A stretch of DNA of 53,939 nt from the IMG/VR virus record IMGVR_UViG_3300027741_000088, positions 1 to 53,939 of that record, one strand, 5' to 3'. The notes beneath the pieces are model-generated. The model did not search any database and was not told the origin of the DNA. It was given only the letters and a program-made list of their open reading frames with translations. The translations under genes were made by a program, and so were the position numbers. The stretch is from a virus. Shown piece after piece: positions 9,603 to 53,939 of this stretch; within the stretch, counting starts at the first letter, position 1; every line of letters starts with the position of its first letter.

Positions 9603-11459
9603 ATGGCGAACCTGAATAATAATTATGATTTGAATATTGATAGTTATGCTGCATTTGATGCATTATCACTCAAAAGCTTAATTATTAACCGTTTAAATAG
9701 CAATACAGTTTTTACTGATCAAAATTTTGAAGGCAGTAATATTTCTGCAGTTATTGATATTATAGCTTATGCATATAATGTTTTGCTTTTTTATCTCAAT
9801 CAAACTGCTACTGAAAGCACATTTAGCACTGCTAGTATTTACGAAAATATTAACAAAATAGTAAAATTGCTTGGCTATAATCCTATTGGATATCAAACTG
9901 CCATTTTACCTTTCAAAGCATATGCTAATTATCAACTTCCAGCTGGTACATACACAGTACCACGCTACACCTACTTTACCATTAATGGTGTTGTGTATAG
10001 TTTTAACAGCGATTCAACTTTTACAAAATCAACCTCCGGTACAGAATATCTTTCTGTATTTAGCGATCAAAATCTATTATACCAAGGCACATACACTGAA
10101 TATCCTACATATGTTGCAACAGGTCAACCTCTTGAGACAATTACCATGGTAATTGTTGACAACAACAATAATAATATTATTATTGATCATTTCAATATTG
10201 ATGTCTATGTAAAAGATAATACTGCAACTACACCCAAGTGGGTCAAATGGGAAACAACACAATCTTTATTTTTAGAGAGATCAAATGCATTAAAATATGA
10301 AATACGTCTAAATGAAAATGGCAGATATGAAATTAAATTTGGAAATAATGTTAATGGCAAGCAACTCAATACAAACGATGAAGTTGCCATATATTATATT
10401 AATTCTAATGGCACCCCTGGACAAGTTGGCCCCAATACATTAAACGGCAATACACCTTTCATATATAACCCAGTAAGGTTTACGCAAATCAAAACAGACA
10501 CAACACCCTCTAATCTCAGATTATTGGATCAACGCGAATTGAATCTATTAAGCTTTGAAAACCCTGATCCTTCTACAAAATTTGTTACTGCTGAATCAGT
10601 AGATAATATAAAAGCAAATTCTACTAATACTTTTAAAAGTCAATATAGATTAATTACAACAGAAGATTTTCAAAATTATATTCTTAAAAATTATAGTAAT
10701 ATCTTAGCATCTGTAAAGGTTGTTAATAACTGGGATTATTTGAGTCAGCATATCAAATACTATTATGATCTAGGGGTAAATAAACCCAGTCTTGAATCAC
10801 GTGTACTGTTGAATCAAGTCAAATTTGCAGATTCTTGCAATTTTAATAACATTTATGTTTATTCTGTACCAAAACTTGAAAAAATTACTTCGCTCTCCAC
10901 AAGAGCAAATTATGTAAACACAGCTCAAAAAAATCTAATCATCAATAATGTTAACAGAACTAAGCTTGCTACTGCTGAAATTGTATTTAATGATCCAGTT
11001 TATGTGCAATTCGATTTAGGATTGAGAGTAGCTAATGAAGTATTAACACCTGAAATTTCAAATAGCTGTTACTTGCAGATAACCAGAGATCTTACAGCTA
11101 AAAGAAACCCCGAATCAATAAGACAATTAGTCGCTAATTTAATTATTAATTATTTTGCTACAACAAAAGATAATTTAGGCAAACTTATTTCTCTAACCGA
11201 TTTATCTAGCGAAATAAATGCTATTGAAGGAATAATAGATGTAAAAACTATTCGTGTTAATGGTACTACAACCTATAGTACACCAGGTATTAATTTTCTC
11301 GCTTTTAATCCTGTGTACCCTTATGATGATATTAATATTATCTCACAAGACACACAGCTACCATTTTTTAAATTTCCATATTTAAATAATCCAGTTAATT
11401 TTATTGATAAAATAACTGTTATAACCCCTTCATTGCAACTTCTTGAGAGAGAGTTTTAA
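9603..11459 (+). CDS. Baseplate wedge protein, gp6 / GpJ-like
   Basis: The 618-residue product matches the baseplate_J class that dimerises into the iris-like core of the contractile baseplate. Near the N-terminus is the helix pair typical of the family ([19 protein letters not shown], about 49-67), followed by the ESTFSTA segment and the KLLGYNP motif about residues 89-95. The C-terminal part has a beta-rich section and then the repeated helical regions expected for gp6. It directly follows gp25 and its stop overlaps the next ATG (TAATG), so wedge and appendage proteins are translated together. Confidence 0.85.
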
Positions 11460-14400
11460 TGACCCCTACAAATTTGTTTTCATATCTTTTTTTTAATATA
11501 AAAGATTTCTCAAATTCTGAGACACTATCAACATATTCTTTAGATATTACACCTTTAACTTTTATACCAGATTTTACAACAGTTAATCTGTTGTCTACTG
11601 CAGGGACTTATGCTAATAAATACGTTCAATGGGATTTTGGTGATGGCACAACCTCTACTCAAATTACTGCAACTCATCACTATAAATGGCCTGGTTCATA
11701 TAAAGTACAGTTAACATTTTTTGATGATCAAGGAAATGCATACAGTGATATATACACACCAACAGTTCAGATTTTTAATTTTGTTGAGGATGATATAATT
11801 TTTAAAGATTACGGTAAATTTATCTACGATGTTCCTGCAAGCAGAATCACTGACCCTTTAGTTATCTTAAGAAGAAACAGCTTTCAAACTTTACAAGCAT
11901 TAACTGGAAATCATTTTACAATTAATTTATATGCTTCAGGTGCACTTGGCAATTATATTAATGCTGAAACATATTATAATGATAAATGGGCTCATTTGAG
12001 GTCTTTATCTCGATTCTATATAAAAGAAAATTTTGGTAAAAATTATAATTATACTATAGTAGATCAAGTCAGTACTATTGACACCAATATATATGCAAGA
12101 ATCAATAACAATGCTTTGGAATTATGTGGTGAAAACGATACTGGCAGTACCTTTGCTGGTACCACTGGATATGCAGAGATTTATTATGTAGATGACCGAA
12201 CTAAAAATTTTACTACCAGAGATTCTCCTATTTTTGTTTTTGCTACACCAGACAATGCATTATATAACGATGCATTTACCTATTCAAATGATCTGTACAA
12301 ATACATACCTCATCCTCCAGAAGGCATGCAGACTATTAAATCTGCTGTTCAGCCCATAATTAAAGTTAGACACAATCCTGCTAATACTCTTTCTATTACA
12401 ACTAATGGCATTGATGGTGAAGGGCCACTTTCTACTACTATATTTCAATTACCAGCAATAAGCTGGCAAAACACAGAAATTCCTTTTGTTATAAAATTAA
12501 AGGATGATCTAGGTTATACAACAAGAACATATCCCCCATTATATTGTTCTTCTATAGATGCAACTACGCCCAGTGCTTCTACTTTTAACTTGCAGATAGA
12601 TCTAATTGCATTGTCTGGAAATAATTATGTACGTACAAAAGATACACTTTATTATAATGATTTTCCTGCAGAAGCACCACAGAGCATTGGTGCTTTTTAT
12701 AAAGGGTATTTTATACCACAATCATCTAACACTACATGCAAATTAACTGCTGGCATGTACATTGTTGATCCAGTTAATTTTCCTAAAGATAGTTTGTTAG
12801 GATGGATTTGTCAACCTGATTACAAATACTTAAAAAGAATATTTAGAACCAGCATATACAACTACTGCTTTGGCACAGCAGAATTTGCGCTTTCAGGGAA
12901 AATTGATAATTTTAGAACACCAAACAGTCCTAATTCTTATTGTTTAGCTGTAGCACCTTCAGGAGCAGGCATAGGCAATGACTACCAAGCTTGGGTAGGT
13001 GATGCTGCAGTTGATAAGATATATAAAGTTGATGTTTTTGGTAATATACTCTCTGCTTTTGCACTATCTTCATATCCAGTTGAATCTTCTTCTGGAATAG
13101 TGTATCAAGATTTACGATCAAATGAATTATCAAGTTCAGCTCCCAATAGCATTGCTCTAGATGGCGCTAGCAACATTTGGATATCACTTTTTGATGCTGT
13201 TTCTTGTATTAAGATCAATAGCAACACTGGTAATGTAATGTCTATTGCTTATCCTAATCTAGTAAATGCAGTATATCTGTTGAGCTCAACATACACATTA
13301 CCTGAATTGTCTGGATTTGCTGGTGAAAATTCTTTATTACCTGCTTCCATTGACACAGATTATGATAACAATTTATGGGTTGCATATACACACCCTGTAT
13401 CAAACTTCTTAATAAAATATGATACATATGGTGACATTTTAACAGCAATTCCTATTGCACCTCTTGTTTCTCCTGTGGAAATAGTAGTTGATAGGGATGA
13501 ATATGTGTGGGTAACTGCTTTAAACAATCTTGTTTCACCTCCAGATATAAACAATAGAAACGATTTTGTATTTAAATATACAAAGTACGGTGATTTAGTT
13601 ACAGGATATCCTATCAGTGGCTTCAAACTTGTAGGCAATATAACAGTGGATGGCAGTCAAAATGCTTATGTTTCCAATTCTACTAATATTATAACTAAAA
13701 TTGATGCAAAAACTGGCCAAACCACTAACTTTATTGCAGGCAGTGCAATAAATATTACCAACTATATTTGTGATATAGGTGGCATTGCTTGTGACACTAG
13801 TGATTACTTGTGGGTTATTAATAATCGCGATAATAAACTATATTATTTTGATATATTGCCAGGTGCCACACCAGCCCTCTCATCAAGCATTTATTTGAAT
13901 CTTGCATTTCCTGCTGATAATGATCCAACTAATCCAGTATCAGCATTTGATGATAGATTATTTCAAGCTTATGGTGATTGGAATGGGTCAAGATGGATCA
14001 ACAAATACATGGTGCCATACACAGTTACAAGATATGTATCAGGAGAATCAAGTGAATTCTCAGTATTTTCCGATAATGGTGTTTATAACATACAAAAAAT
14101 AAATGAAAATTTTGATGCCAATTCTTTTTATGATAATTTAAGATATCAAGAAATTTTATTAGATAAAAGTGTATTTTTTGATGAATTTTTAGGAACAATT
14201 GTGGGCAACTTGAGCGCTCAACCTTATGAATTAGGAAAAACAATATATGAAAAAATAGCAAACTTTACTTCTAATATTGCAGATGTAGACAAGTGCAATT
14301 TATATCAATTGCTTTCTTTCTGCAAAGAACTTGGAATACAGTTTGAACAATACAACTACCCTTTTCCTCCTCAGCTTAGACGCATAGTGGATCTTCTCAG

Positions 14401-16549
14401 CATTAAACAACGCATATTATATGGCAGCCAAAATCAATATATCAGTGATTTCAATAAAAAATTTACTGTCAATCCCAATATTGGCAGAAACTTAGGCAAT
14501 AGAATCTCACCTATTTCAGGCACAATAACATCAGGTAAACCTATTGTTGCTTATGAAAAATTTTCTAATTTGTACACTCTAGTAAACACCAATATATTTC
14601 CTACACCCACACCCACACCCACACCCACACCCACCCCTACTCCCACTCCTACTCCCACATCAACACCAATTCCTGTAACTTTTGTCACTTCAAATGGTCA
14701 AGTAGTAGTGCCCAGTGCAAATAATATTAACCTTAGTGTAAGCAACACAGTTACAAATTTTGTTCTTGGGTTCAATTTAACAGATTATTGCTCAATAAAA
14801 AACAATTTTGATGTAACAAATTACAGCAATTGTTATCTTTCAGGATATAATTTTAATAATGTTTATTTGACTAAAAATCCTATATATGTCACTAATGCTG
14901 CAACATTGTCATCTGCTCCTGCAAATTACTTCTCTATATACTACTACACCACAGGATCTGCTCTTGTAAATGTATTGAGTAGCAAAACTGCTCCTACACC
15001 CACACCCACACCTACTGTCACTCCAACAGTAACACCCACAAGAACACCTACTCCAACACCAACAGTAACACCCACAAGAACACCTACTCCAACACCAACA
15101 GTAACACCAACACCCACAGTAACTTCCACACCTGCACCCACACCTACACCCTCTCCCACCCCAACTATAACACCCACACCTACTGTAACAGTTACTCCCA
15201 CTCCAACTATTACACCTACGCCATCACCCACACCTACTATTACACTTACACCCACACCCACTCCAACTATTACACCCACACCTACGCCTACTGTTACACC
15301 CACGCCTACTGTTACACCAATACCTATAGTATTTGGACGTCTTCCTTTTGTGGCCGGAAGAAATAGTTCTCAAAACACCTTCGGTACAGGTGCTGGAACA
15401 GCAGTTATAACTGCTCTTACTGCCATGTCTGCAGCTACAATGCCTGTACCACAGTATAGCAAATTTGTATTATCAAAGAACTCATCAGGAGTTACAAATT
15501 TTGCGCTTTCCGCTAATACAACCAAATGGTTTGGCTCAGGAGATAATTCTGCTGGACAAATGGGCATAGGCAATACTACATTATACGTAACTTTAACTGC
15601 TATTCCTGGCAATTGGACAGATATTATTGTTAGTAACTTTTATCCCAGCCAATTCACTGTTGCACAGAGTGCAAAACCTGATGGTACACCATCCAACCAA
15701 TGGTATGCAACAGGAACCAATGCTTATGGCCAGTTTGGTGTACCGCAGTATTACACAAATTCATTTAATTCTTTTGTGCCTATTACTGGCTCTTGGTCAA
15801 AAATGCGACCAGGAGATAGTTATACTTTGGCACAAAGTGCAAAGTCTGATGGCACACCATCAACTCAATGGTATGCAGCAGGTAGGAACACAACAAATAA
15901 TATTTTTGGTTTTCAAGCAGGTGGTAGTAATAATTCGTACACTTCTTTCACACGCATCACAGGAGAATGGGTTGATATGATATCACATGATGGTAGTAGA
16001 ACATATGCTTGCACACTGGCTCAAAGTGCTGGCCCCCTTGGCATAGGATCAAACAAATGGTTTGGTGCAGGGTATAATGGCGCAAACAATTTTGGAAATA
16101 GCAATTCTACAAATTCTCAAACATTTACAGCCATGCCAGGTGATTGGTATACCATGTATAATACAACATTTACAACTGTTGCACAGAGTGCAAAGTCTGA
16201 TAGTACACCATCAACCCAATGGTTTGGAACAGGTATTAATTTTTATGGTATGTTTGCTAATAGTAATAATACTAACACTACAGTATTTACAGCCATACCT
16301 GGTGATTTTATAAAAGTAATACCAAATTCATATTATAGCATTGTGACTCTGAGTGCACAAACAACAACACCCAACCCTACAGCTGTTTATGTTGCTGGCA
16401 TAAATGTATGGGGTAATTTTGGCAACGGCAGTAACAATAATACTACAATTTTTACGCTTTCAGCCATACCTCAGCCTCTGCATGAAATTTATTCTGGTGA
16501 TAATAATTCACTCTACGGTATTCTTAGCACATATGTAACAACATACTAA
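11459..16549 (+). CDS. Giant tail appendage protein: PKD, beta-propeller, two Thr-Pro linkers, RCC1-like repeats (1696 aa)
   Basis: This is the longest gene in the window. The N-terminal part has a PKD-type Ig fold at about residues 45-103 (WDFGDGTTS core). Residues about 490-810 hold repeated blade-like units ending in phrases such as NLWVAYT, YVWVTAL and YLWVINN, typical of an NHL or lyase-type beta-propeller. Thr-Pro repeat linkers follow at about 1047-1072 and 1178-1288. The C-terminal 400 residues contain repeats with W[FY]G[ST]G-like and GNFGNG-like units and repeated [12 protein letters not shown] phrases, like RCC1 propellers. It follows gp6, where gp7-, gp8- and gp10-type wedge partners would lie, so the N-terminus probably docks on the baseplate and the rest binds cell surfaces. 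The Thr-Pro tracts might be glycosylated. Confidence 0.8.
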
Positions 16550-23890: not shown

Positions 23891-26536
23891 ATGCAAATTT
23901 ATAGTCTAGATTCATACAATTTAGTACCTTTATCTAGCAACTATTCTAGTGATAGTAATGTACAATTTCTTAAGAATACTCTGTATACAGAAAATAATAT
24001 ATTTGTAAATTTAGAAAAAATTTCACAAAATATTAACGATTTTAATATTAACAATTATTCTTCATTATCTCTAACTGACAGAAAAACGCTAAATAATGTA
24101 TTAGAATTAACACCATTAGCACCTCTGCAAGATGAAGGATTTTCATCTTATCTTGCAGCTAATGCTTTGTATAGCATAACAGACAGAACAAGATTTTGGG
24201 TTGTTGAAGAACCAGACATCTCTTTTAATACAGCTTCAGTTAAAGTATCCGGTACATCAACTAAAATGAATAATACGTATTATTTTGAAATTATTTTTCT
24301 AGATAGCAATACTTGTAAGATAGCTCATGAAAACGATGGTATCAAAAGATATTTAACTACAGACATAACCAACTCACTTGTTTTTTCCAAAGATGCTTCA
24401 CTGGACAATTTAGGAGAGTACAGCCCACAAATCTTTTTGTATACGTATGACAGGCCAAATGATTTAATTGTATTCTATAAAAATTTATCTGATATTATTT
24501 ACTACGTAGGGTATGATAGCGCCATGCAGGAGCTTACTCTCATTTCTACTATAACTGGAACTAATTTAAATTTTACCAATCAAACTGTTTTTCGCTGTCA
24601 AAAAAGAACAGATGATTCAAATATCACACCGTTAGTAGATCCATGGGTTTCATATGAAAAAAATTCTAACAATACAATTCCCATATACAAAAATCTTAGC
24701 TATAAAAATGTTGAGTCTAATATGCTTCTTAACTCTCAATATTATACAATCTCTGGAGACACATTAGATACAAACATACTTTCATTAAAAAATACTAATA
24801 CCCCTGAAAATTATCAATCTAGAGCAAATCCATTCTTTCAAGAACCTGAAGTGCTCATGAGAGATTACAAAAAATTATTTACTGGATCCAATCAAGAATT
24901 AGGCAATGATAATATAACTTTAGGCTATGAAGCATACACAGTAAACGTGCTACTCAAAAAAGATAAAGTTACATATTTTCATGTGCCGCAAAATTTCTTT
25001 CCTCTTAAAACACTCAATTTAAATGATTCTGCTTTAGCAGAAGCAGGTGCCATAGCTGGTGACCATCCAATTAAAAGCGATAAGATATTTAAAAAGAAAG
25101 CCAATTATAAATTCACCAGCCCTTTCGGCAATACAAAAATTGAAAATACAGGTAGTTTTTTGTGCTCTTGGTTATCAGGAAACTCTAATGCATACTCACG
25201 ACCTGTTTGGATGGATAGATATTATTTTCCTTCTAAAATTTCTTTTCTTGGTGCATTAACTGCAACAGATTTTAATGCAATAGAATACAAATCAAATTAT
25301 GAATGTTTGCAAAGTATATTTCCTTCACAAATACAAGTAGTTGATATTATCTCAAATTCTATATTTGAACCTGGCACATATTATGCCTATCAACATTTAG
25401 GTCCAAATTTTAGTAAAAAATATATAGAATCTAAACAAGACAGATTAATTCAGTTTGGCATAAAAACCAATAACATCTTACAAAAAGAACCACTCACTGC
25501 AGGTAATTTTACTAACAGTAGATTCATTAGTGGTGATGTATTTATACAGCCAGCTACACCCACACCCACTCCCACACCTACTGTAACAGTCACACCCACA
25601 CCTACCATTACACCCACACCTCCTGCACCAACTGTTACACCAACTAGAACACCCACACCCACACCTACTCCAACTGGAGCACCTACCTTTACGCCCACAC
25701 CTACACCTACTATTACACGAACACCCACACCTACACCTACCATTACACGAACACCCACACCTACACCAACACCTACTCAAGTGCCTGAATTTGTGTATGC
25801 AGGGTTACCAGCTACATTAAGTTATAATCTCAATCTGGCTGTGGAGTACAAGAATTTTACAGGCAATGTTATAGGATCTGCACCTAGAAATGTTACATTT
25901 ACACTACTAGGTAGTGCAGGCAGTTTGATTACTACAACAGCAGCTATTGACACAGGCAATGCTTGGCCAGCTGGCTCTACAATTACATTAACTGTGCCAT
26001 CCAATAGTGTTGTGCATGGTGCTGGTGGAAGAGGGGCTTATGCCACATCACCTACAAATATAATCATTGAAACCGGTGGTGATGCTATTACTATAACCAA
26101 CACTGCCAATATAACTTTTAATATCATTAATAATGGCATCATAGGTGGTGGAGGCGGAGGAGGTGGTATAGGCAGATATGATAGCAGCGACAGTGTAAGT
26201 TCACAAGCTTGGATGGGCGGCGGTGGTGGTGCAGGAGATGGCCCAGGAGCTGGTGGTACAGGATATGCAACAGGTTATGCTGGTAGTCTTGCACGTTCTG
26301 GTAATCCAGGAAGCAGTACAGCAGGTGGAGCAGGTGGTTCTTGGTATAATATATATGGTGCTGGTGCAAATGGAGGTGCTGGAGGCGGATTGGGTCAAAA
26401 TGGCTTAACTGGCAGAGGTAATAATTCCTCTGGAACAGGAGATGGCGTTGGCGGTGCTGCTGGTAAAGCAGTTAATAAGAATGGCAAAACAGTCACAGTT
26501 ACTGGTACTGGTACAGTGTTAGGAGCTGTATCATAA
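23891..26536 (+). CDS. Tail fibre with Thr-Pro linker and polyglycine-rich tip (881 aa)
   Basis: Three parts can be seen. Residues 1-550 form an Asn/Tyr/Ser-rich body likely to attach to the baseplate. Residues about 554-631 are a Thr-Pro repeat linker with interspersed Val, Ile and Arg. The C-terminal 250 residues have the arrangement of a phage glycine-rich tip: WPAGSTITL (about 697-705), then HGAGGRG, an [15 protein letters not shown] stretch and several Gly-rich blocks that could form polyglycine II helices, as in the gp38 adhesin of Salmonella phage S16. That design places variable receptor loops between polyglycine strands. It is likely a receptor-binding fibre. The linker may be glycosylated. 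Confidence 0.75.
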
Positions 26537-28315: not shown

Positions 28316-29784
28316 TGAATATCACGCAAGAAATTGATAATTATGGTCTTAACTATGATAGATACCCATCACAAATTTTATCTTTGCCCTATTCTTTAGA
28401 AGAAATAAAAATACAGCCAAACGATACAGTTAGTAATGATGTAATAAATCTTAAACTGCAGCATTTATATGAGAATTTTTTATATATTTATTCGAAAAGT
28501 AAAATTGCTTCAAATATAATACCTATTAGTTCAACTGCAACGCTAGGAATGAGTACTTATTTTACGTACTTGGCATGGAATTACAATCTATCCACTTCAG
28601 AATTTAAACCTGTTACTTGGAGCTTACCTGATAGCTTTAATAATTTAAAAACCATATATGCTCTTCGTTCACCTGATTTGTCTCAATATTCAATATTCGG
28701 TACTAATGGTGATACACTGTTTATTGTCAGGTCTACAGATACAGAAAGTGAAGTTCTTTCCACTTCTGTTATAACCCAGTTTAACACCCCTGCTTTAAAT
28801 AATGTTGCGTTTTCAAATATTGAAGCCATAACAGATGGTCCTGATCAGAGTATTTTAATCTTAGACAAAGGTAATAATGCACTCTATCAATATGAGGCAA
28901 GAGGGTTCACACAAAATAATAATGTATTTTTCAACAGGTTAATTTTTAGAAATTTACTTGGAGGGTATGGGTCAGCTGATGACAAGCTCTCTTTCAATGC
29001 ACCAACAGATGTAATCACTTACAATGAAGATATATTTGTTTTAGATACTGGTAATAGTTGCATTAAGAAGTATGATCAAAACTTAAACTGGATTAGTACA
29101 TTTAGATTGAACCTTGATTTTCTAAACAATTCACCAAAAAAGCTTAAAGTAGATTCTGCTGGTAATTTCTTTTGTTTACTTTCTGGTAATAGATTTAATA
29201 TTTATTCAAATAATTTTCAGCAAAAAACTGAAATTGTTGTAGATTATTTAAATAATACAGAATCCATAACAGATATTGTTTTTTCCAAAACAGATACAAA
29301 CATATATTACATAGTAACAGATCAAAACATATACAAAGGATTGGTAAATAACCCTGGTGATACTATTGGTAAGTATTTGTTCTATCTGTACAAATACAAT
29401 GATCAACAGAATATTAAAGCTTTTGCTTCCATAGGCATTGGCAGCAATGATAAAAACTTAATAGTTTCTAAAAACCCATCCACAAGTGCACAAATAATTG
29501 GTGCATTTTATGATAACATAAATCTGTATGATGTTTTAAGTATTCCAGATTTTGATATATACACAATGAATGAAATTTCTATAAAACTAGAGGAGTATGT
29601 GCAAAGCTGGGTAGTGAATAAATCACTAATTAAACTAATTACTAATCATCTTAGATTCATAGAACAAATTATAGGTAAGTTTCAATTTAAGTTTGATTCA
29701 AGAAGAAATTCTGTATTCCAGTTCACCCGCTATTTAACAGCTAAAGAACAACAGAAATTAACACAACAAGCGGAGATTTTATAA
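28315..29784 (+). CDS. Beta-propeller (NHL-like) tail protein (489 aa)
   Basis: An in-frame ATG lies 12 bases earlier, but the ATG at 28315 is chosen because it overlaps the preceding stop as TAATG. Residues about 120-400 repeat units such as [18 protein letters not shown] and [17 protein letters not shown], characteristic of NHL-type beta-propellers. The C-terminus is helical ([20 protein letters not shown]). The stop overlaps the ATG of the next fibre gene by one base. The protein probably serves as a structural or ligand-binding part of the same appendage as its neighbours. Confidence 0.65.
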
Positions 29785-31160
29785 TGAATCAAGAATTTGA
29801 TAATTACATTGGTCAAAATGAAGTTGTTACTGATTCTTCTATTAACAGATGCTTAGTAAACATATTTAATTTGCAACAAAATCTTATCAGTGCTCTTCAA
29901 GATGAATTGTCACCAGAAGCCCTCAATACACCTATAATTTTGAATATTCCTTGGACCCCCACACCCACACCCACTCCCACACCTACTGTAACACCCACAC
30001 CTACCATCACACCAACTGCTACACCTACTCCAACAATGACTCCGACAAATGCACCTACTTTCACCCCCACACCCACACCTACAAGCACTAATATACCCAC
30101 GCCTACACCCACACCCACACCCACTATTACTCGTACACCCACGCCTACACCTACCATTACACCAACAATTAATCCATATGAGACACTGACTGTCAGAATT
30201 TTTAATTTTGATACAGTCATAGAGTCTTCTATTAATCTTTTTGATTACATGTGTCAAAAGCTTGGCCGTTTGCCTTCCAGCTTTATCAGGCCTCTAGACG
30301 TAACATTTTACAATGCTACTCTAATTGGTTGCAAGAAAGGATATTATTATGCTATACGCACAGGCACTGGGTGGCCTGCTGGCAGCAAAATAACAATATT
30401 CAATCCAAAAGTTACAACTTCAACCAACGCACTGTATGGTTATGATGGTACTTACCCAACAAGTGCAAGACCTAATGTGACAGGCCCTGCAGGTGGTGTT
30501 ATCATGGGCAGAGGTGCAGATGGCATGTGTGGTCCATTGCACACACGTAGTTGTGTTGGTTGGTATCTATGGGCACAAGAATTTAATTGCAATTCTGCAG
30601 AGAGCATATATGGATTGTGTGGAAATGGTTGCAACGGTTCGCCAGGTGATGCAATTTGGATTGATGCAGGTCTCACTATGGTGACCATACAAAATGAAGG
30701 GGTGATTGCAGGTGGTGGAGCAGCTGGCCCATATTTTAATGTTTATAGAGATGGTGGTTCAGGTGGTAGTGCTGATGGCAGAGCAGGTGGTGGTGGATTG
30801 CCAGGTGGCCGTGGAACGTTGCTGTCTTACCCATATAATCGTGTATGTCAAAATACACAGCCTACAGATTGGTATGGAAGTTGGGGTGGTGCTACTGGGT
30901 ATCAACCTGGTTATAATTCTCCTATTAACCCAGCTGGTGGTGCTGGAAATTCAAGTGCTGCTGCGACTTCTCCATGGTGGAGTGCAGGAAATGCAGGAAA
31001 TCCTGCAAGTTATGCCTTAAAAACATTTGGCCACCCTTATACTTGGGAAACTGGTAGCAGTCCATTAGGCAACCCTTATTATCCACCAGTGGGCGGTGGT
31101 GTTGGTCGAAATGATCCATTTAGCCCCAGTGTGCTTCGCAATGGTCTCATAGGACCTTAA
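29784..31160 (+). CDS. Second tail fibre with Thr-Pro linker and glycine-rich tip (458 aa)
   Basis: This is a shorter relative of the 881-residue fibre. Residues 1-55 form a helical attachment part, about 57-128 is a Thr-Pro repeat linker, and the rest is a Cys- and Gly-rich tip. The tip contains [10 protein letters not shown], then [11 protein letters not shown] and an [12 protein letters not shown] block, the same order as in the larger fibre, but with several Cys residues (for example NGCNGSPG and VCQNTQ). Both proteins end in glycine-rich receptor-binding-like domains, so they may offer alternative tips. It ends the operon that starts at the late motif near 26550. Confidence 0.72.
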
Positions 31161-37865: not shown

Positions 37866-37868
37866 ATT

Positions 37869-38030: not shown

Positions 38031-38032
38031 AT

Positions 38033-38104
38033 GCCTGAGTAGCTCAGTGGTAGAGCAACGGTTTTGTAAACCGTCGGTCGCTGGTTCAATCCCAGTCTCA
38101 GGCT
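38033..38104 (+). tRNA. tRNA-Thr (anticodon TGT)
   Basis: The acceptor stem GCCTGAG pairs with CTCAGGC with T as the discriminator, the D-arm reads GCTCAGTGGTAGAGC, and the anticodon loop reads TTTGTAA. The T-arm is GCTGG-TTCAATC-CCAGT. It reads ACA, a codon used heavily in the Thr-Pro linkers of the tail proteins. Confidence 0.95.
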
Positions 38105-38110
38105 CATATT

Positions 38111-38181
38111 TGCCTTGTGGTGTAATGGTAACACAGCGGTCTCTGAAGCCGCTTTTCTACGTTCAAGTCGTAGCAAGGCAA
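38111..38181 (+). tRNA. tRNA-Gln (anticodon CTG)
   Basis: The acceptor stem TGCCTTG pairs with CAAGGCA, with discriminator A. The anticodon arm is GCGGT-CTCTGAA-GCCGC, giving anticodon CTG for CAG. The T-arm is CTACG-TTCAAGT-CGTAG. CCA is not encoded. The next promoter begins three bases after this tRNA. Confidence 0.88.
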
Positions 38182-38183
38182 AG

Positions 38184-38217: not shown

Positions 38218-39192
38218 ATGAAACATTGCTTGGTTCTTGGTGCAGGTGGATTTATTGGCAATCACCTAGTCAATAAGCTGGTTGAGCAAGGTCATTGGGT
38301 CAGAGGGGTAGACATCAAGACCCCTGAATACAGCAAAACCAAAGCTAATGAATTTTTAACGTTTGATCTAAGAAAAAACAAACTAGTAACAGAATCTTTT
38401 GATTGCTGCCCCAACGGTGAAGGGTTTGATGAAGTGTATCAATTGGCAGCTGACATGGGTGGTGCAGGTTACATATTTTCTGGTGATCATGATGCTGATG
38501 TGATGCACAATTCAGCTCTTATTAATCTGCATGTGTGTGAGAATGCTGTTCAATTTAAAGCCAAGAAAGTATTTTACTCTTCTTCTGCTTGCATGTACCC
38601 AGAACACAATCAATTGGATCCTAATAATCCCAATTGTGAAGAGAGTTCTGCTTACCCTGCAAATCCTGACAGTGAATATGGATGGGAAAAGCTTTTTAGT
38701 GAAAGATTATACTTAGCATTTAACCGCAATCACAATCTGGATGTAAGAATTGCCAGGTTTCACAATATCTTTGGACCTTATGGGTCTTGGAACAATGGCA
38801 AAGAAAAAGCCCCAGCTGCAGTATGCAGAAAAGTAGCACAAGCAGAAGATAGTGGTGAAGTTGAAATTTGGGGTGATGGTAAACAGACACGAAGCTTTCT
38901 TTATATTGATGAATGCTTAGAAGCAGTTGAGAGGTTAATGAATTCAGATTTCAAAGGCCCTGTAAATATCGGGTCTGAAGAAATGATCACCATCAATCAG
39001 TTAGTAGACAAAGTGAGTAAAATTGCTGGTAAATCATTGATCAAAAAGCACATACCTGGACCATTGGGTGTTCGAGGCCGCAATTCTGACAATAAACTTA
39101 TTAAAGAAAAACTTGGATGGTGCCCTTCTTTGCCTGTAGAATATGGGCTGCAGAAAACTTATGCATGGATAAATGCACAGGTGCACAAATAA
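38218..39192 (+). CDS. GDP-mannose 3,5-epimerase (GME-like)
   Basis: The 324-residue product is an extended SDR enzyme that converts GDP-D-mannose to GDP-L-galactose (and GDP-L-gulose). The NAD-binding loop is GAGGFIG (8-14), followed by YQLAADMGGAGYI (74-86), SSSACMYP (121-128) and the catalytic Tyr154 and Lys158 in YGWEK. Downstream are RFHNIFGP, EKAPAAVCRK, DGKQTRSF and GVRGRNSDN, which closely follow the plant-type GME sequence as I remember it and separate it from general UDP-glucose epimerases. It has its own early promoter, directly after the tRNA array. It would supply an L-sugar donor for the glycosyltransferase cluster. Confidence 0.9.
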   Translation: MKHCLVLGAGGFIGNHLVNKLVEQGHWVRGVDIKTPEYSKTKANEFLTFDLRKNKLVTESFDCCPNGEGFDEVYQLAADMGGAGYIFSGDHDADVMHNSALINLHVCENAVQFKAKKVFYSSSACMYPEHNQLDPNNPNCEESSAYPANPDSEYGWEKLFSERLYLAFNRNHNLDVRIARFHNIFGPYGSWNNGKEKAPAAVCRKVAQAEDSGEVEIWGDGKQTRSFLYIDECLEAVERLMNSDFKGPVNIGSEEMITINQLVDKVSKIAGKSLIKKHIPGPLGVRGRNSDNKLIKEKLGWCPSLPVEYGLQKTYAWINAQVHK

Positions 39193-41423: not shown

Positions 41424-42392
41424 ATGCCGAAAATACTTGTCACAGGTGGCTATGGATTCATAGGCACACATTTTCTCATACGTCTGTTAGAAGATACAGA
41501 TTTTGTTGTGTACAACATAGATTGTGAATCATATGCAGCCAATAAAGATAACATAAAAATGTATCTTAAGGACAACAAACAATACCGCAGAAGACTCAAA
41601 TTGTTTAAAAAAAACATATCTAATAAGAAACTATTGGATGCATTGTTTGCAAAAATTAAGCCTGACTTTGTGGTTAATATTGCAGCTGAATCTCATGTGG
41701 ATAACAGCATCACAGGCCCTGCTCCTTTTATTCATTCTAACATTGTGGGTACATTCAATCTTCTGGAATGTTCCAGAAAATATGATGTGAGCAAATACAT
41801 TCAAGTGAGCACAGATGAAGTTTATGGGCAACTACATGATTTAAATGATGCTTATTTCAAAGAGACAGATAACTTGCATCCTAGCTCTGTGTATTCAGCT
41901 TCCAAAGCTTCTGCAGATTTATTAGCTTTGTCTTATTTCAAGACATTCAAGCTCAATGTGTGTGTTACTCGTTGTTGCAATAATTATGGTCCTCATCAGC
42001 ACAAAGAGAAACTATTGCCCAAGACCATTCTCAATGCTTTGGGCAATTTACCAATTCCTGTGTATAGCAAAGGTGAGAACATGAGAGAGTGGATACATGT
42101 ACAAGACCATTGCAGAGGTATTCTTGCTGTTCTGAATCAAGGCGCACCAGGTGAAATATACAACATTGGTACTGGTACAGTTTTAACAAATATTAAGCTT
42201 GTTAAAATGGTAATTGAGTTGGTAGAAAGAAAAGAAGATCTAATTGAATTTGTTGAAGACAGAAAAGGACATGATTTTATATATGCTACCAACAGTGACA
42301 AGATTGCCAGTGAATTGAAATGGCTACCCAAGATTGATTTTCAGGAGGGATTGAAGCAAACAATTGCATGGTATAAAAAACAGTTGAATTAA
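41424..42392 (+). CDS. dTDP-glucose 4,6-dehydratase (RmlB-like)
   Basis: The 322-residue extended SDR enzyme would make the dTDP-4-keto-6-deoxy-glucose intermediate used for rhamnose and other deoxysugars. NAD-binding GGYGFIG is at 8-14, NIAAESHVDNSI at 85-96, the active-site Thr130-Asp131-Glu132 in STDEVYG, and the catalytic Tyr157 and Lys161 in YSASK. The substrate region (RCCNNYGPHQ) and the C-terminal helix follow the RmlB family. No RmlC- or RmlD-like gene is visible, so the product may be used by other enzymes outside the window. It is the last gene before the tmRNA. Confidence 0.93.
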   Translation: MPKILVTGGYGFIGTHFLIRLLEDTDFVVYNIDCESYAANKDNIKMYLKDNKQYRRRLKLFKKNISNKKLLDALFAKIKPDFVVNIAAESHVDNSITGPAPFIHSNIVGTFNLLECSRKYDVSKYIQVSTDEVYGQLHDLNDAYFKETDNLHPSSVYSASKASADLLALSYFKTFKLNVCVTRCCNNYGPHQHKEKLLPKTILNALGNLPIPVYSKGENMREWIHVQDHCRGILAVLNQGAPGEIYNIGTGTVLTNIKLVKMVIELVERKEDLIEFVEDRKGHDFIYATNSDKIASELKWLPKIDFQEGLKQTIAWYKKQLN

Positions 42393-49074: not shown

Positions 49075-49439
49075 TGTATCATCGTAAAAAAAGAAAAGGT
49101 CTTCCCTACACATTTCAAGAATTTGCATTCTTTTCTCCTAAACAATTTGATGCACTAGTCCCTGTGGAAGAAAAGGATATGCTATTCAAGCTCAAGATAT
49201 GTACCAACTCTAACAGAGTTTTCTCAGGTCCTTTTTTTATGGAAAGTGCTGTTCAACATGAGGTTACAGAGAAAGAACTTAAGAAAATGCTCAAGATTGT
49301 GAATGAAACACCAGGTCTTATCATATATGGTGAAGAATATACTATTACAGATGATTACAATGGTCTTTGGAAGTATTATGGAAAAGAAGGAGAAATACCT
49401 TTGGCTAATATTATTACAGAAGAACTGTTGGCCCAGTAG
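49074..49439 (+). CDS. Protein of unknown function (121 aa) with tRNA embedded in its end
   Basis: The product has a basic N-terminus (MYHRKKRKG), a middle alpha/beta region (FKLKICTNSNRVFSGPFF) and an acidic helical end. Its last ten bases, including the TAG stop, form the 5' acceptor of the following tRNA, so maturation of the tRNA would cut this mRNA. No family is recognised. Confidence 0.5.
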   Translation: MYHRKKRKGLPYTFQEFAFFSPKQFDALVPVEEKDMLFKLKICTNSNRVFSGPFFMESAVQHEVTEKELKKMLKIVNETPGLIIYGEEYTITDDYNGLWKYYGKEGEIPLANIITEELLAQ

Positions 49440-49502
49440 CCCAATGGCAGAGGCAAACGACTTAAAATCGTTCAAGTGTCAGTTCGAGTCTGACCCGGGC
49501 CA
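49430..49502 (+). tRNA. tRNA with Leu anticodon TAA but a short variable loop
   Basis: The acceptor GGCCCAG pairs with CCGGGCC except for one A-C mismatch, the T-arm is GTCAG-TTCGAGT-CTGAC and the anticodon arm AACGA-CTTAAAA-TCGTT gives TAA for TTA. The variable region is only five bases (CAAGT), whereas bacterial tRNA-Leu normally carries a long extra arm. The tRNA starts inside the stop codon region of the preceding gene. CCA is not encoded. Confidence 0.8.
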
Positions 49503-49524
49503 TAAAATATCCAAGAAGATAATA

Positions 49525-49559: not shown

Positions 49560-49757
49560 ATGAAACGTACAGATCTTATTGATAAAAAGGTTTTGTTTTT
49601 ACATTACCCAGTTTCTAAATTTAATGTACTTGAAGGCAAGGTAAAAGAGTACTCGCCATCAAACAACTTTATTAAAATTAATACTGATTGGTATTTGTTA
49701 GAAAATATTAGAATTTTAGAAATGTTCCCTGAAGAAAAGAAAACATTAGGCTTTTAA
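49560..49757 (+). CDS. Small SH3-like or KOW-like protein (65 aa)
   Basis: The short strand-rich pattern (KKVLFLHYPVSKFNVLEGKVKEY split by a loop, then NFIKINTDWYLLENIRILEM) looks like a five-strand SH3-type barrel, often used for RNA or protein contact. It ends with a charged tail overlapping the GT11 gene by 12 bases on the opposite strand. The fold is a guess from strand order. No family is recognised. Confidence 0.45.
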   Translation: MKRTDLIDKKVLFLHYPVSKFNVLEGKVKEYSPSNNFIKINTDWYLLENIRILEMFPEEKKTLGF

Positions 49758-50579
49758 TTTAATTTCACCATTGTCCCAATAGGTTGGTACTTTGATCCAA
49801 CCATCTGCATAGATGTCGTGCTCATAATAGCCCCTACCATGCACTCCAGGACCAAACCAAGTATCTGGACTAACAACAACTTTACCAGGCAATTTACTCA
49901 AGTAAGCACCCCACCAAGAAAATGTGGAATTAGAGATAACAAAATTTTTACACAAGCTCAATAACCACAGCGCATCAAGCTCTTTGTATTCAACAAATGT
50001 TATTTTATCAGTTTTTATATTGTCCTTGCACCATGGTATGTCGTCACTAACAACATAAATAAACTCTTTATTAGGAATGCGTTCTAGTGCGTCATATATA
50101 AATTCCTTGGTAATTACAGGATGATTCTCTGGTTGAGTTAAATAATCGCCTCTTCTTACATTTATGGCAGTAACATTATTAGATGCAAGTTCTGGATAAG
50201 CTTTAAAGCATTTATTTATAAACTCTTGTGAAGGTGAAAATAAATCAATTATAGTATTCTTATTGTTTAAAAAATATTTTTCACTTTGATAATAACCATT
50301 AAATATAGTAATTTTATCTTTTACTGGTAAAACTTCAGAAAAATGAAAAGGAGCATAGACATTTTCTGAATTGAGTATATTATCTGTTTTGTCAATTAAA
50401 AAATCTATATTTTTAAAAATATTATCCATATATGGAGCTACAGGCACTTCAAATTTAGGAGCTACAAATTGTTTTCTATGAGTCAATGCTTGGGAATAAC
50501 CATGAGCTATTTGAAACATTTGATTGCCTAGCCTGCCTATCATGCGACAAGTAATAAAATCTGAAGTTAAACAATTCAT
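49746..50579 (-). CDS. GT11-family fucosyltransferase-like enzyme (277 aa)
   Basis: The product carries IGRLGNQMFQIAHG (14-27), the substrate-binding motif of alpha-1,2-fucosyltransferases, the NVRRGDYL block near residue 140 (GDP-sugar binding), and the SNSTFSWWGAYL block near 214-225. All three are characteristic of GT11. The usual reaction moves L-fucose from GDP-fucose to galactose. Since the window encodes a GDP-L-galactose-forming epimerase and no GDP-fucose synthase is seen, the donor may be GDP-L-galactose, which some fucosyltransferases accept. Its start overlaps the GT25 stop (ATGA). Confidence 0.88.
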   Translation of the reverse strand: MNCLTSDFITCRMIGRLGNQMFQIAHGYSQALTHRKQFVAPKFEVPVAPYMDNIFKNIDFLIDKTDNILNSENVYAPFHFSEVLPVKDKITIFNGYYQSEKYFLNNKNTIIDLFSPSQEFINKCFKAYPELASNNVTAINVRRGDYLTQPENHPVITKEFIYDALERIPNKEFIYVVSDDIPWCKDNIKTDKITFVEYKELDALWLLSLCKNFVISNSTFSWWGAYLSKLPGKVVVSPDTWFGPGVHGRGYYEHDIYADGWIKVPTYWDNGEIKLKA

Positions 50580-51244
50580 GAAATATCTATTATAGTTTTG
50601 TTAAAAGTGTGTATAAAGGGAAATATTCCCATAGATTTTCCATGAGCATCACAATCACTATAGCCTTCAGTCTGAGGGACAGATACAGGGTAAACGATAT
50701 ATTTAATTATTTCATTTCTTGCGCTTAACCATCCATCAAGTGTGCTATCTAAATGAGGATTAAATTTATTTAAAATAAAGTCATAAATTGTATTATTGAA
50801 TGCATATGCATGTGTTGTTAAAATAGAATTAGCTTTTAAAAGATTTTTTGATACTTTTTTTAATTCTGAATCTATAACAAGACCACCAAGATGAAATACA
50901 TGCCAATCATTAAATTTCTGCAAGTCATCTAATGCTGCTTCCACAATATCAATTCCTCTATATGTATCAGAATTGTAAAAAAATGCATCATCTTCAAATA
51001 TAAGAATATTTTTAAGATTCTTTTCTTTTGCTAGTTTTATTAAGTTGTAGTGACTTAATGAACATGCTCTTAACCTGCTGTAGTCATCAAGAGGTGTATG
51101 TGTTGCATCCATGGATGCTGAAAATCTCTGTACAAAGTTATTTAAGTTGTATTTGCTTAGCTCTTTTTCAAAAGACTCTCTTCTATCAGCTCTTTTATCC
51201 AAATTTATATAATACGCTTCACTAAAATAATCTTGTAGTTTCAT
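50576..51244 (-). CDS. GT25-family glycosyltransferase (222 aa)
   Basis: The N-terminus has YYINLDKRADRRESFEKEL (11-29), SLSHYNLIKLA near 64-74, and ILIFEDDAFFY near 81-91, where the EDD is the metal-binding acidic motif. These match the glycosyltransferase family 25 of lipooligosaccharide biosynthesis enzymes, which add galactose or a similar sugar. It overlaps the GT11 gene downstream and has a T4-like TATAAATT before the start. It could act on lipid-linked oligosaccharides or on protein glycans. Confidence 0.85.
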   Translation of the reverse strand: MKLQDYFSEAYYINLDKRADRRESFEKELSKYNLNNFVQRFSASMDATHTPLDDYSRLRACSLSHYNLIKLAKEKNLKNILIFEDDAFFYNSDTYRGIDIVEAALDDLQKFNDWHVFHLGGLVIDSELKKVSKNLLKANSILTTHAYAFNNTIYDFILNKFNPHLDSTLDGWLSARNEIIKYIVYPVSVPQTEGYSDCDAHGKSMGIFPFIHTFNKTIIDIS

Positions 51245-51251
51245 ACTAATA

Positions 51252-51259
51252 AATTTATA
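51252..51259 (-). promoter_or_regulatory. Possible late-type promoter motif, reverse strand
   Basis: Reverse-strand TATAAATT ends 7 bases before the ATG whose A is at 51244. A second AATAAATA lies further upstream (51258-51265). Neither is as clear as the others. Confidence 0.25.
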
Positions 51260-51307
51260 TTTATTAACTTACAAAATTTAACATTTTCATAGTTAACTAA
51301 CTTAGAA

Positions 51308-52057
51308 TTATTTAGGTAAAAATAGCCAGTCAGAAATTCCTACTTGCTCTAATGAATATCCTATATCTGTTAACATTTTAAACTCTTTTGCAGTATGTTC
51401 TATACTGGTTTGACCAAAGTGATTTGACCAGCATTCTAAAGTTATAATAGGTTTAAATTTTTTAATAGTCTCTAAACCACCATTTATTGCTCTTGGTTCA
51501 TAACCTTCTACATCTAATTTAATAAAATCCAGCTTGTCGAGATTTAAAAAATCTATACTAACTGTTTTAATTGGGTAGCATTCATTAGAGGTTACTGTCA
51601 TGTGGTCATATGGAGGAGCTCCCATGGGGTTGCTCTCTAGCCCTGAACCCCCTAAATTATAAAACGGCATCCAATCAAATTTTGATATACTCTGATTATC
51701 AGACAATGCATCACTAAGAACGATGGTATTCAAACAGTTATTTCTGATCACATTTCTTCTAAGCAATTCATTAGATTCTCTTAAAGGCTCAAAACAATAA
51801 AGCCTCTTTGCTAATTTAGATAGTTTGACACTGTGTGAACCAATATGACAGCCACCCTCAAGCACAACAGAATCATTAGTTACATATTTTTCAAAAATTT
51901 TATGCAAATGAGGTTCCCAAATTTTATTTTGTTTTAATTCCACACCTATAAAATCATGACGGAACACATAAAAAAAAGCAGATTCTGCATTGTGATAGTT
52001 CTGAACTTCAAATTCATTAGGTTCAACATCATATTTCTGTAATAACATTTCATCCAT
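51308..52057 (-). CDS. FkbM-family methyltransferase (249 aa)
   Basis: The product contains VVLEGGCHIGSHSVKLSKLA (the SAM-binding glycine motif), YCFEPLRESNELL and, later, FIKLDVEGYEPRAI, the three parts that define FkbM methyltransferases. These enzymes O-methylate sugars or glycans in natural products and surface polysaccharides. Its position between glycosyltransferases supports glycan O-methylation. An early-type promoter with perfect spacing lies inside the end of the upstream gene, so it can be expressed separately. Confidence 0.9.
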   Translation of the reverse strand: MDEMLLQKYDVEPNEFEVQNYHNAESAFFYVFRHDFIGVELKQNKIWEPHLHKIFEKYVTNDSVVLEGGCHIGSHSVKLSKLAKRLYCFEPLRESNELLRRNVIRNNCLNTIVLSDALSDNQSISKFDWMPFYNLGGSGLESNPMGAPPYDHMTVTSNECYPIKTVSIDFLNLDKLDFIKLDVEGYEPRAINGGLETIKKFKPIITLECWSNHFGQTSIEHTAKEFKMLTDIGYSLEQVGISDWLFLPK

Positions 52058-52061
52058 AAAC

Positions 52062-53240
52062 TTATATTACTAAATCATTTATTAAATTCAACCACATTTC
52101 ACCTACTTTTTGAATATTAAAATTTTCTAAAATGTAGTCTGAACCTGATGTTTGCAGAGCTTGTTTCAAAGCAGAGTTTGATTCGATTTCATTAAATTTA
52201 TTAACAATATTTGAAGTTATTTTAAAATGACCATCTACATCTTTTGATAAAGGCTCTTTTTGCATATTTTCAAAAGAAATACCTGGAGGTTCATTTAACC
52301 AAGCGCAATAATTTTTAAAAACATCAGGTAGAGCACCCAAAGGATAGGTAATAACTATAACACCTAAAGCAATTGCTTCAGCTACAACACAAGAAAATGT
52401 ATCTTTATGTACATCTTGGTAAGGCGTATACAGAGGGTATATAAAATACTCGCTTTCCGCTAAATGTTTAAATAAAGTTTTCTTATCTACACTGTCGTGT
52501 CTATGAAAAAATTCATCCTTGTGGTCATGTATTACCATCAAATAATCAAATGCATGAAATTCTTTTTCAGGTATATTTATATTTCTTACAGCATCTACAG
52601 AAATATCGCCTCCTCGAGGCCAAGAAGCATGAAATATAAACTTTCCTTTCTTTTTTGTATAGTTCTTTGCTTTGATTTCATTAATAATTTCGTCAAAAAT
52701 AGGATTAGGTATTTGTTTTTTTATTGATTTAGGTATTTTAGCTTGTATATACGGAAAAGTCCCTTCATTCATTTTTTCTTCCCAGTCTGATATATGAACT
52801 AACCCGATTGATAAATTATGTTTTTCAGCATATTCAACAAACTTATATGTACCGTAAACCCATTGCATATGTGACCAATAGATAAGACTTTTAGTTACTT
52901 TTATTGGTAAATTTTCATAATCTTCAAACCATAACATGCTAATAAGAACATCAAACGTTTTATCTTCTATACCATCAAAATTAAGATTGGTGTACTTTAC
53001 ACCATAAAATGCTTCACCTGGTGTGTAGGACCTACCCATATTTTTATAGGATTCATTTAAAGGAGCATCTATTATATCTGATGCAAAAACAACTTCATGC
53101 CCATTTTTAGCTAAAAACTCAGCCACCAGTATTGCGCTTGTATCTGTACCAGATCCACCAGCTCCATCGTGTCTTAAAGTATGACCATTTAAAAAATTGC
53201 TTCTTCTGCTATTTCCTATAACCACAAAAGCTATTCTCAT
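52062..53240 (-). CDS. GT4-like glycosyltransferase (392 aa)
   Basis: The N-terminus has GGSGTDTSAILVAEFLAKNG followed by HEVVFASD, the nucleotide-sugar binding pattern of GT-B folds. The C-terminal half has FIFHASWPRGG..., then EAIALGVIVITYPLGALPDVFKN, the donor-binding E-x-x-x-x-G segment of GT4-like enzymes. The acceptor sugar cannot be predicted. Its start overlaps the preceding GT60-like gene by four bases, so translation is coupled. Confidence 0.82.
   Translation of the reverse strand: MRIAFVVIGNSRRSNFLNGHTLRHDGAGGSGTDTSAILVAEFLAKNGHEVVFASDIIDAPLNESYKNMGRSYTPGEAFYGVKYTNLNFDGIEDKTFDVLISMLWFEDYENLPIKVTKSLIYWSHMQWVYGTYKFVEYAEKHNLSIGLVHISDWEEKMNEGTFPYIQAKIPKSIKKQIPNPIFDEIINEIKAKNYTKKKGKFIFHASWPRGGDISVDAVRNINIPEKEFHAFDYLMVIHDHKDEFFHRHDSVDKKTLFKHLAESEYFIYPLYTPYQDVHKDTFSCVVAEAIALGVIVITYPLGALPDVFKNYCAWLNEPPGISFENMQKEPLSKDVDGHFKITSNIVNKFNEIESNSALKQALQTSGSDYILENFNIQKVGEMWLNLINDLVI
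52064..52091 (-). promoter_or_regulatory. Early-type promoter of the FkbM gene, reverse strand
   Basis: Reverse-strand TTGAAT (52091-52086), 16 bases, TAATAT (52069-52064), ending 6 bases before the ATG whose A is at 52057. It lies inside the coding end of the GT4-like gene. Confidence 0.55.
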
Positions 53241-53938
53241 AAATCACCATCCTGTCTCTCACCAAAGCTATTCGACTCTTCGTAAAATGGATGCATGATC
53301 CATTTTGCAGGTTTATCTTCTGATTCAAACTCAAGCTTAAGAATATTATTATTAAGAGCAAAACATTCAGGAGCATCTTTTTCAAAATAATCTTTTCTAT
53401 AAATCTCTTGATTAAACTTACTGTGTACACCTAAAGCAATAAACTTAAGTTTTTGTTTTTTATCAATCTTACTCAAGTTAATAGGAACAGAAAGATTGTA
53501 TTTTTCTTTTCTAATGTCATCTTCCCAGCTGATAGGATTTGGTGGCTCTTTAGCTGCTAGTGTGTAGTTTTGAATGCGGCACTTCTTAAAATCAAACCCA
53601 CCAAACTCTTCATAGTCTTTCAAAGTGCGCGCCGTTCCAAGCCCATATATACCAATATCTATATTGTGCTGCTCTTGTTCAAATAACTGCCTGGTTTTAT
53701 TTCTTGCATAGATATCTCTTTCATAGCTTGCTTTTTTACCATGCTCATTTTTCCCATGATCATCCCAATGCTTTCTTCTATAGTTTCTCGTATATTCATG
53801 CCAGATATATTGTCTATATGGACTATAAAAATCATAACCACACGTATATGCTCTAACTGACATTGTTGTCTCTTCTACATAACCACCAAAATAGATGTCT
53901 GGATCATAGGGTACTTCTTCAATAAACTTACCATCTAC
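53237..53938 (-). CDS. GT60-like GlcNAc transferase, C-terminal part (5' end beyond the window)
   Basis: The frame remains open past the ATG at 53863 to the window edge, and its upstream codons read IEEVPYDPDIYFGGYVEETT, continuing into MSVRAYTCGYDFYSP and IWHEYTRNYRRKHWDD. The order D-P-x-x-x-F-G-G-x-x-E-E, then R-x-Y-T-x-G-Y-D-F-Y-S-P and a H-x-Y-T-R motif, is the C-terminal part of the GlcNAc-transferase family PF11397 (GT60), which in eukaryotes puts GlcNAc on Thr or hydroxyproline. About 234 codons are visible; the N-terminal half, including the DxD region, is missing. The stop overlaps the GT4-like start. Confidence 0.8.
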   Translation of the reverse strand, partial: VDGKFIEEVPYDPDIYFGGYVEETTMSVRAYTCGYDFYSPYRQYIWHEYTRNYRRKHWDDHGKNEHGKKASYERDIYARNKTRQLFEQEQHNIDIGIYGLGTARTLKDYEEFGGFDFKKCRIQNYTLAAKEPPNPISWEDDIRKEKYNLSVPINLSKIDKKQKLKFIALGVHSKFNQEIYRKDYFEKDAPECFALNNNILKLEFESEDKPAKWIMHPFYEESNSFGERQDGDL

Positions 53939-53939
53939 T

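What the first reader, a model, noticed from the sequence alone, without database searches (positions are those of the whole stretch)
49746..53939. Thr-Pro mucin-like fibre linkers together with a phage glycosyltransferase cluster suggest self-glycosylated tail fibres
Three tail proteins (11459-16549, 23891-26536, 29784-31160) contain long Thr-Pro repeats, which are the usual acceptors of clustered O-glycans in mucins. The same phage carries GT11, GT25, GT4 and GT60-like glycosyltransferases, two methyltransferases and two sugar-nucleotide enzymes. GT60 members are known to attach GlcNAc to Thr or hydroxyproline. The linker and enzyme sequences are seen; their link is inference. Alternatives are changing the host surface glycan or DNA modification.
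Basis: partly seen in the sequence, partly recalled or inferred. Interest (0 to 1): 0.85.

Follow-up and report, generated by a model that had tools for sequence, protein, structure and literature searches.

The report
Phage mucin-type glycosylation cassette for fibres
This phage carries a set of sugar-adding enzymes, led by one built like the enzymes that start mucin glycans in animals and protozoa, and across many unrelated phages that enzyme gene lies beside or in the same genome as genes for threonine-proline-rich particle proteins, so these phages probably sugar-coat their own tail fibres.

Summary
Three tail proteins carry Thr-Pro (TP) linkers. The minus-strand cluster at 49746-53939 encodes GT11, GT25, an FkbM methyltransferase, a GT4-type enzyme and the C-terminal half of a GT60; the record ends inside the GT60 gene. 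I found one methyltransferase, not two. The two sugar-nucleotide enzymes are GDP-mannose-3,5-epimerase-like and RmlB-like and lie 7-11 kb away.

The inferred link gains strong comparative support. GT60-GT4-(GT25)-GT11 is a conserved phage cassette. Of 80 GT60 contigs, at least 57 carry TP repeats, against 1 of 45 random viral contigs. In 23 of 49 dereplicated cases a TP-rich gene lies within 1 kb on the same strand. In the reverse direction, 9 of 44 TP contigs encode GT60, against 0 of 45. A phage GT60 model most resembles mucin-initiating ppGalNAc-transferases and keeps their DxH motif. A 162-kb relative of this phage carries both TP fibres and GT60-GT4. Isolated phage XacN1 has a GT60 and a TP-rich protein, and its published proteomic analysis reports at least two glycoproteins.

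No biochemistry shows that TP is the acceptor, and in this window the cluster is not adjacent to the TP genes. Verdict: probably self-glycosylated fibres, a mucin-type variant of known phage virion glycosylation.

The parts
11459..16549 (+). 1696-aa baseplate-proximal fibre-like protein: PKD domain, two TP-rich linker regions, RCC1-like C-terminal part
   Evidence: follows a baseplate wedge gene at 9603-11459
14594..14680 (+). TP linker 1a (10 TP in 29 aa)
14987..15331 (+). TP linker 1b (more than 30 TP)
23891..26536 (+). 881-aa fibre protein: anchor, TP linker, gp38-type adhesin tip
   Evidence: PF05268 E 1.7e-10, phrog_11439 tail fibre 7.6e-18
25547..25777 (+). TP linker 2
29784..31160 (+). 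458-aa fibre-like protein: short N-terminal anchor, TP linker, Gly-rich tip
29955..30170 (+). TP linker 3
53237..53938 (-). GT60 (PF11397) polypeptide HexNAc-transferase-like protein, C-terminal half only (record ends inside the gene); proposed initiating enzyme
   Evidence: E 2.4e-21; 53-61% identical to full-length phage GT60s
52062..53240 (-). GT4-type (GT-B fold) glycosyltransferase, conserved directly downstream of GT60
   Evidence: AlphaFold pLDDT 86.8 with PDB matches BshA, PglA
51308..52057 (-). FkbM-family methyltransferase, proposed sugar O-methylation
   Evidence: PF05050 1.2e-11, TIGR01444 above cut-off
50576..51244 (-). GT25 glycosyltransferase
   Evidence: PF01755 4.1e-10; present in 30/49 cassettes
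49746..50579 (-). GT11 (alpha-1,2-fucosyltransferase family)
   Evidence: PF01531 3.5e-28; present in 22/49 cassettes
38218..39192 (+). GDP-mannose-3,5-epimerase-like sugar-nucleotide enzyme, possible GDP-L-galactose supply
   Evidence: PDB 2c59 E 8.6e-93 over the full length
41424..42392 (+). RmlB, dTDP-glucose 4,6-dehydratase
   Evidence: TIGR01181 390.9 bits vs cut-off 365.1; PDB 2hun E 8.9e-89

Best explanation
The cluster is a phage-borne mucin-type O-glycosylation cassette for the phage's own fibre proteins. Late in infection the soluble GT60 enzyme puts a first alpha-linked HexNAc (GlcNAc or GalNAc; donor unknown) on threonines of the TP linkers. The GT4 enzyme next to it, then GT25 and GT11, extend the chain, and FkbM may O-methylate it. 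The epimerase and RmlB probably supply unusual GDP- and dTDP-sugars, and GT11 may add L-fucose or L-galactose. The product would be stiff, hydrated, protease-resistant bottle-brush linkers that hold receptor-binding tips away from the baseplate and shield the fibre shaft. Shown here: the linkers, the enzymes, the conserved cassette order, the statistical and positional linkage to TP-rich genes in many phages, and the ppGalNAc-T-like fold of the enzyme family. Inferred: that TP threonines are the acceptor, the sugars used, the order of addition, and the benefit to the phage.
For: Cassette: in 49 dereplicated GT60 loci GT4 is adjacent in 39, GT25 present in 30, GT11 in 22, in the window's order. 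TP repeats in 42/80 GT60 loci vs 0/120 random loci and in at least 57/80 records vs 1/45. Nearest TP ORF on the same strand in 26 of 27 dereplicated loci, within 1 kb in 23 of 49. The gene directly upstream of GT60 is TP-rich in 18/47, expected 3.8. Reverse test: GT60 in 8/120 TP loci vs 0/120, often a neighbouring gene, and 9/44 vs 0/45 records. All 8 records of at least 47 kb in the window's own GT60 subclade carry TP. G038, a 162-kb relative with 31-83% identical structural and replication genes in the same order, has both TP fibres and GT60-GT4. DxH motif, shared by GT60 and GT27 (PMC7185993), in 89/92 relatives. AlphaFold model (pLDDT 92.5): nearly all of the top 50 PDB hits are ppGalNAc-Ts. 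T. cruzi GT60 makes GlcNAc-alpha-Thr in mucins (PMC9472816). XacN1: GT60 (ORF334), a TP-rich protein (ORF350), and at least two glycoproteins by proteomic analysis (PMC5852040).
Against: No enzyme activity or glycan has been measured. In this window the cassette lies about 19 kb from the nearest TP gene and on the other strand; in its GT60 subclade local adjacency is rare. The window's GT60 lacks the half with the DxH motif. 35 of 44 TP records show no GT60, though most are fragments. TP records also have more GT2 enzymes (16/44 vs 4/45), so part of the signal could be general glycosyltransferase richness. The 80 GT60 loci were ranked by similarity to a TP-adjacent query. At 70% clustering only 8 clusters remain and the adjacency excess is not significant. 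Adjacency to fibre genes could also mark a receptor-modification module. XacN1's glycoproteins were not identified in the text I could read.
Confidence: 0.75

Rival explanations
1. The cluster remodels the host cell surface (LPS, capsule or glycolipid) to block superinfection or free progeny, and sits near fibre genes only because both belong to the host-interaction module. The TP repeats are bare spacers.
For: GT11, GT25, GT4, FkbM and RmlB families are common in O-antigen and capsule loci (established knowledge). TP contigs are generally richer in glycosyltransferases. UDP-galactopyranose mutase or GDP-mannose dehydratase sits upstream of GT60 in some loci.
Against: GT60 members with known activity modify polypeptides (PMC7185993, PMC9472816, PMC6939170). 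The model's nearest PDB folds are ppGalNAc-Ts. No initiating phosphoglycosyltransferase, flippase or polymerase was seen among the window genes scanned, and GT11, GT25, FkbM and GT60 show no membrane segment. A host-surface role does not predict adjacency to TP-rich genes specifically.
Confidence: 0.15
2. The enzymes glycosylate virion proteins other than the TP linkers, such as the capsid, as in mycobacteriophages Che8 and Rita. TP linkers co-occur because large aquatic phages have both.
For: Capsid glycosylation by phages is documented (cited in PMC11256854). TP linkers occur without a visible GT60 in most TP records.
Against: Close same-strand adjacency to TP-rich ORFs recurs across deep GT60 clades. 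Mucin-type enzymes prefer Thr near Pro (established knowledge).
Confidence: 0.07
3. The enzymes glycosylate phage DNA to evade restriction, as in T4.
For: The phage is T4-like (gp25, gp6, clamp loader) with a dCMP deaminase.
Against: No match to DNA glucosyltransferases and no pyrimidine hydroxymethylase among the genes scanned. FkbM and GT60 act on sugars and polypeptides.
Confidence: 0.02

Closest known systems
GT60 polypeptide alpha-GlcNAc-transferases (T. cruzi TcOGNT1; Dictyostelium and Toxoplasma Gnt1)
   Same: PF11397 family, DxH motif in relatives, Thr/Pro-rich proposed acceptor as in T. cruzi mucins; co-occurring fucosyl- or Galf-type genes resemble the Skp1 and T. cruzi mucin glycans (PMC9472816, PMC6939170)
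   Different: Phage-encoded, with an extra C-terminal beta-rich region (about residues 325-416 in the model), in an operon-like cassette with GT4, GT25 and GT11; activity unknown
GT27 ppGalNAc-transferases (mucin-type O-glycosylation in animals and Toxoplasma)
   Same: Closest solved folds, DxH metal motif, TP-type acceptors
   Different: Different CAZy family, no detectable sequence match even with a profile, donor sugar untested
Virion glycosylation by mycobacteriophages (Che8, Rita; Freeman et al. 2023, as cited in PMC11256854)
   Same: Phage glycosyltransferases proposed to decorate the phage's own virion
   Different: Capsid targets there; here TP fibre linkers and a mucin-type initiating enzyme
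Xanthomonas phage XacN1
   Same: GT60 (ORF334, 34-38% identical), TP-rich protein (ORF350), at least two glycoproteins by proteomic analysis (PMC5852040)
   Different: Jumbo phage without the GT4-GT25-GT11 cassette annotated next to GT60; which proteins are glycosylated is not stated in the text read

Membership tests
GT60 (PF11397) | Profile match above the curated cut-off | tested here: met
   77 bits vs cut-off 21 for the window fragment; 205 bits for the full-length relative L171
GT60 (PF11397) | DxH motif (PMC7185993) | tested here: inconclusive
   Missing from the window because the gene is cut; present in 89/92 relatives
GT60 (PF11397) | GT-A fold like GT27 | tested here: met
   Relative L171: pLDDT 92.5, top PDB hit 6nqt E 8.2e-11
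GT60 (PF11397) | Transfers alpha-GlcNAc to Thr or hydroxyproline of a polypeptide | not testable with these tools
   Needs an enzyme assay
Phage virion self-glycosylation | Glycosyltransferases encoded by the phage | tested here: met
Phage virion self-glycosylation | Glycans on virion proteins | not testable with these tools
   Only indirect: XacN1 glycoproteins (PMC5852040)
Serotype conversion / host LPS modification (Gtr-type) | Membrane flippase and membrane-anchored transferase | tested here: not met
   No membrane segment in GT11, GT25, FkbM or GT60; GT4 shows one hydrophobic peak inside its GT-B fold; no flippase among scanned ORFs
T4-type DNA glucosylation | DNA glucosyltransferase plus pyrimidine hydroxymethylase | tested here: not met
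   None among scanned ORFs of this partial genome

The most novel reading that the evidence does not exclude
A widespread group of tailed phages carries a transferable mucin-type O-glycosylation system of its own: a GT60 enzyme structurally akin to animal ppGalNAc-transferases, with dedicated extending enzymes, acting on TP-rich fibre proteins with up to about 165 TP motifs, so that virions bear true bottle-brush mucin domains made in a bacterial cytosol.
Probability: 0.6. Interest if true: 0.9.

Novelty: new variant of a known kind. Interest (0 to 1): 0.8.

Why it matters
Known phage virion glycosylation is rare and centred on capsids. A conserved cassette with a mucin-type initiating enzyme, coupled to TP-rich fibre proteins, would explain why TP repeats recur in environmental phage fibres, give a bacterial-cytosol system for making mucin-like glycoproteins, and raise a direct evolutionary question about GT60/GT27 enzymes shared by phages, giant viruses and protists. 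Isolated phages (XacN1, RAS14, CM1) make it testable now.

Tried and rejected
Phage-database search with the TP fibre gave nothing, so isolates related to the window phage were not found. A degenerate pattern for near-identical GT60 genes gave no contig extending past the window's right end, so the gene upstream of the window's GT60 is unknown. Closer relatives G001, G002, G014, G016 and G017 carry TP fibres but no GT60 on their records; G001, G002, G016 and G017 do not cover the window's right end, so they neither support nor refute. Reading the epimerase pair as a GDP-fucose pathway was rejected: 38218-39192 matches GDP-mannose-3,5-epimerase and 41424-42392 matches RmlB. A second methyltransferase was sought and not found. 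A profile search of PDB sequences with the phage GT60 alignment gave nothing; only fold comparison shows the ppGalNAc-T kinship. Adjacency at 70% clustering was uninformative (8 clusters). Literature searches found no paper linking phage GT60 or TP repeats to virion glycosylation other than the XacN1 remark.
Full report
What was checked. The three TP-linker proteins are real and not a composition artefact (mixed synonymous codons). The first follows the gp25 and gp6-like baseplate wedge genes, the second ends in a gp38-type adhesin (PF05268), and the third ends in a Gly-rich tip. Between the window and contig L003 the anchor of the second fibre is 85% identical while the tips are less conserved (70% over 96 aa, and 53% for the third protein), so TP linkers separate conserved anchors from faster-changing tips.

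The cluster. On the minus strand, in likely transcription order: GT60 (5' part beyond the record end), GT4-type, FkbM, GT25, GT11. Only one methyltransferase was found. The sugar-nucleotide genes at 38218-39192 and 41424-42392 are GDP-mannose-3,5-epimerase-like and RmlB. The window is a whole IMG/VR record of 53,939 bases, classed linear.

A conserved cassette. Window GT60 relatives were retrieved from IMG/VR, then a deep search found 575 coding stretches, of which the best 80 were kept; the same type of search found 5 in 84,980 bacterial and archaeal genomes. In 49 clusters dereplicated at 90% identity, GT4 is adjacent in 39, GT25 present in 30 and GT11 in 22, in the window's order. One of these contigs, the 184-kb G005, shares only the cassette with the window and none of its structural genes in the 180 kb compared, so the cassette occurs in unrelated phages.

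Link to TP-rich proteins. Controls were 120 loci picked by a random 14-mer. TP repeats occur in 42/80 GT60 loci and 0/120 controls; on whole records at least 57/80 against 1/45 (Fisher p about 1e-15, not corrected for relatedness or record length). After dereplication 27/49 loci have a TP-rich ORF, 23 of them within 1 kb on the same strand, and strands agree 26 to 1. The gene directly upstream of GT60 is TP-rich in 18/47 against 3.8 expected from shuffling within loci. The reverse test, anchored on TP repeats alone, is free of the ranking bias of the GT60 set: GT60 in 8/120 loci against 0/120, in several cases as a neighbouring gene, and 9/44 records against 0/45. TP records are also richer in GT2 enzymes (16/44 vs 4/45), so some of the signal may be general.

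Phylogeny. On the GT60 tree TP-adjacency is scattered over all deep viral clades and needs at least 8 changes, so it is not one inherited accident. The window groups with L205 (98*) in a subclade where TP genes are rarely adjacent; yet all 8 of its records of at least 47 kb carry TP repeats elsewhere, as the window does. L205 lies in G038, a 162-kb relative of the window phage (gp25 64%, gp6-like 69%, clamp loader 66% identical, same order) that has TP fibres, GT60 (57%) and GT4 (56%) together, with a GDP-mannose 4,6-dehydratase directly upstream of GT60.

Enzyme identity. The DxH motif that marks GT27 and GT60 (PMC7185993) is present in 89/92 relatives. The AlphaFold model of a full-length relative (pLDDT 92.5) matches ppGalNAc-transferases at nearly all of the top 50 PDB ranks (best 6nqt, E 8.2e-11), although sequence profiles find no PDB relative. 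The GT4-type enzyme of the window folds as a GT-B transferase. Characterised GT60 enzymes act on Thr in T. cruzi mucins (PMC9472816) or on hydroxyproline in Skp1 (PMC6939170).

Isolates. Only three deposited phages match the GT60 (XacN1, RAS14, CM1). XacN1 ORF350 is heavily TP-rich and RAS14 has a TP-rich large protein in the same region. The XacN1 paper reports at least two glycoproteins by proteomic analysis and suggests phage-encoded transferases (PMC5852040); which proteins these are was not in the text read.

Judgement. Self-glycosylation of TP fibre proteins is the best explanation (0.75). The acceptor, the sugars and the benefit are inferred. Virion glycosylation by phages is already known in mycobacteriophages (cited in PMC11256854); the mucin-type initiating enzyme and its TP-fibre coupling are the new part.

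Noticed in passing
window 20058-23825: 1255-aa fibre-like protein with leucine-rich repeats and an MBG domain, unusual for a phage tail protein.
   Followed up: no
window 31202-31675 and 31677-33539: Two genes with Mtd_N (major tropism determinant N-terminal) domains (the second just below the cut-off). No search was made for a diversity-generating retroelement.
   Followed up: no
window 42862-44877 (-): 671-aa protein with about fourteen-residue SHAEG-type repeats (42-nt tandem period) and a weak beta-roll match, likely a trimeric fibre or head decoration.
   Followed up: no
L200:8854-9963, L216:9000-9986, L205:747-1754: UDP-galactopyranose mutase (two loci) or GDP-mannose 4,6-dehydratase lies directly upstream of phage GT60, suggesting Galf- or fucose-containing glycans like those of T. 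cruzi mucins or Skp1.
   Followed up: partly
window 37868-38182 and 49429-49503: Five tRNA genes (Tyr, Asn, Thr-UGU, Gln-CUG, Leu-UAA). Thr-UGU reads ACA, the commonest Thr codon of the TP linkers.
   Followed up: no
L248-L252: The only bacterial contigs retrieved with this GT60 subfamily are five proteobacterial MAG contigs, four titled Deltaproteobacteria or delta proteobacterium, with a 621-aa ORF and no TP-rich ORF nearby.
   Followed up: no
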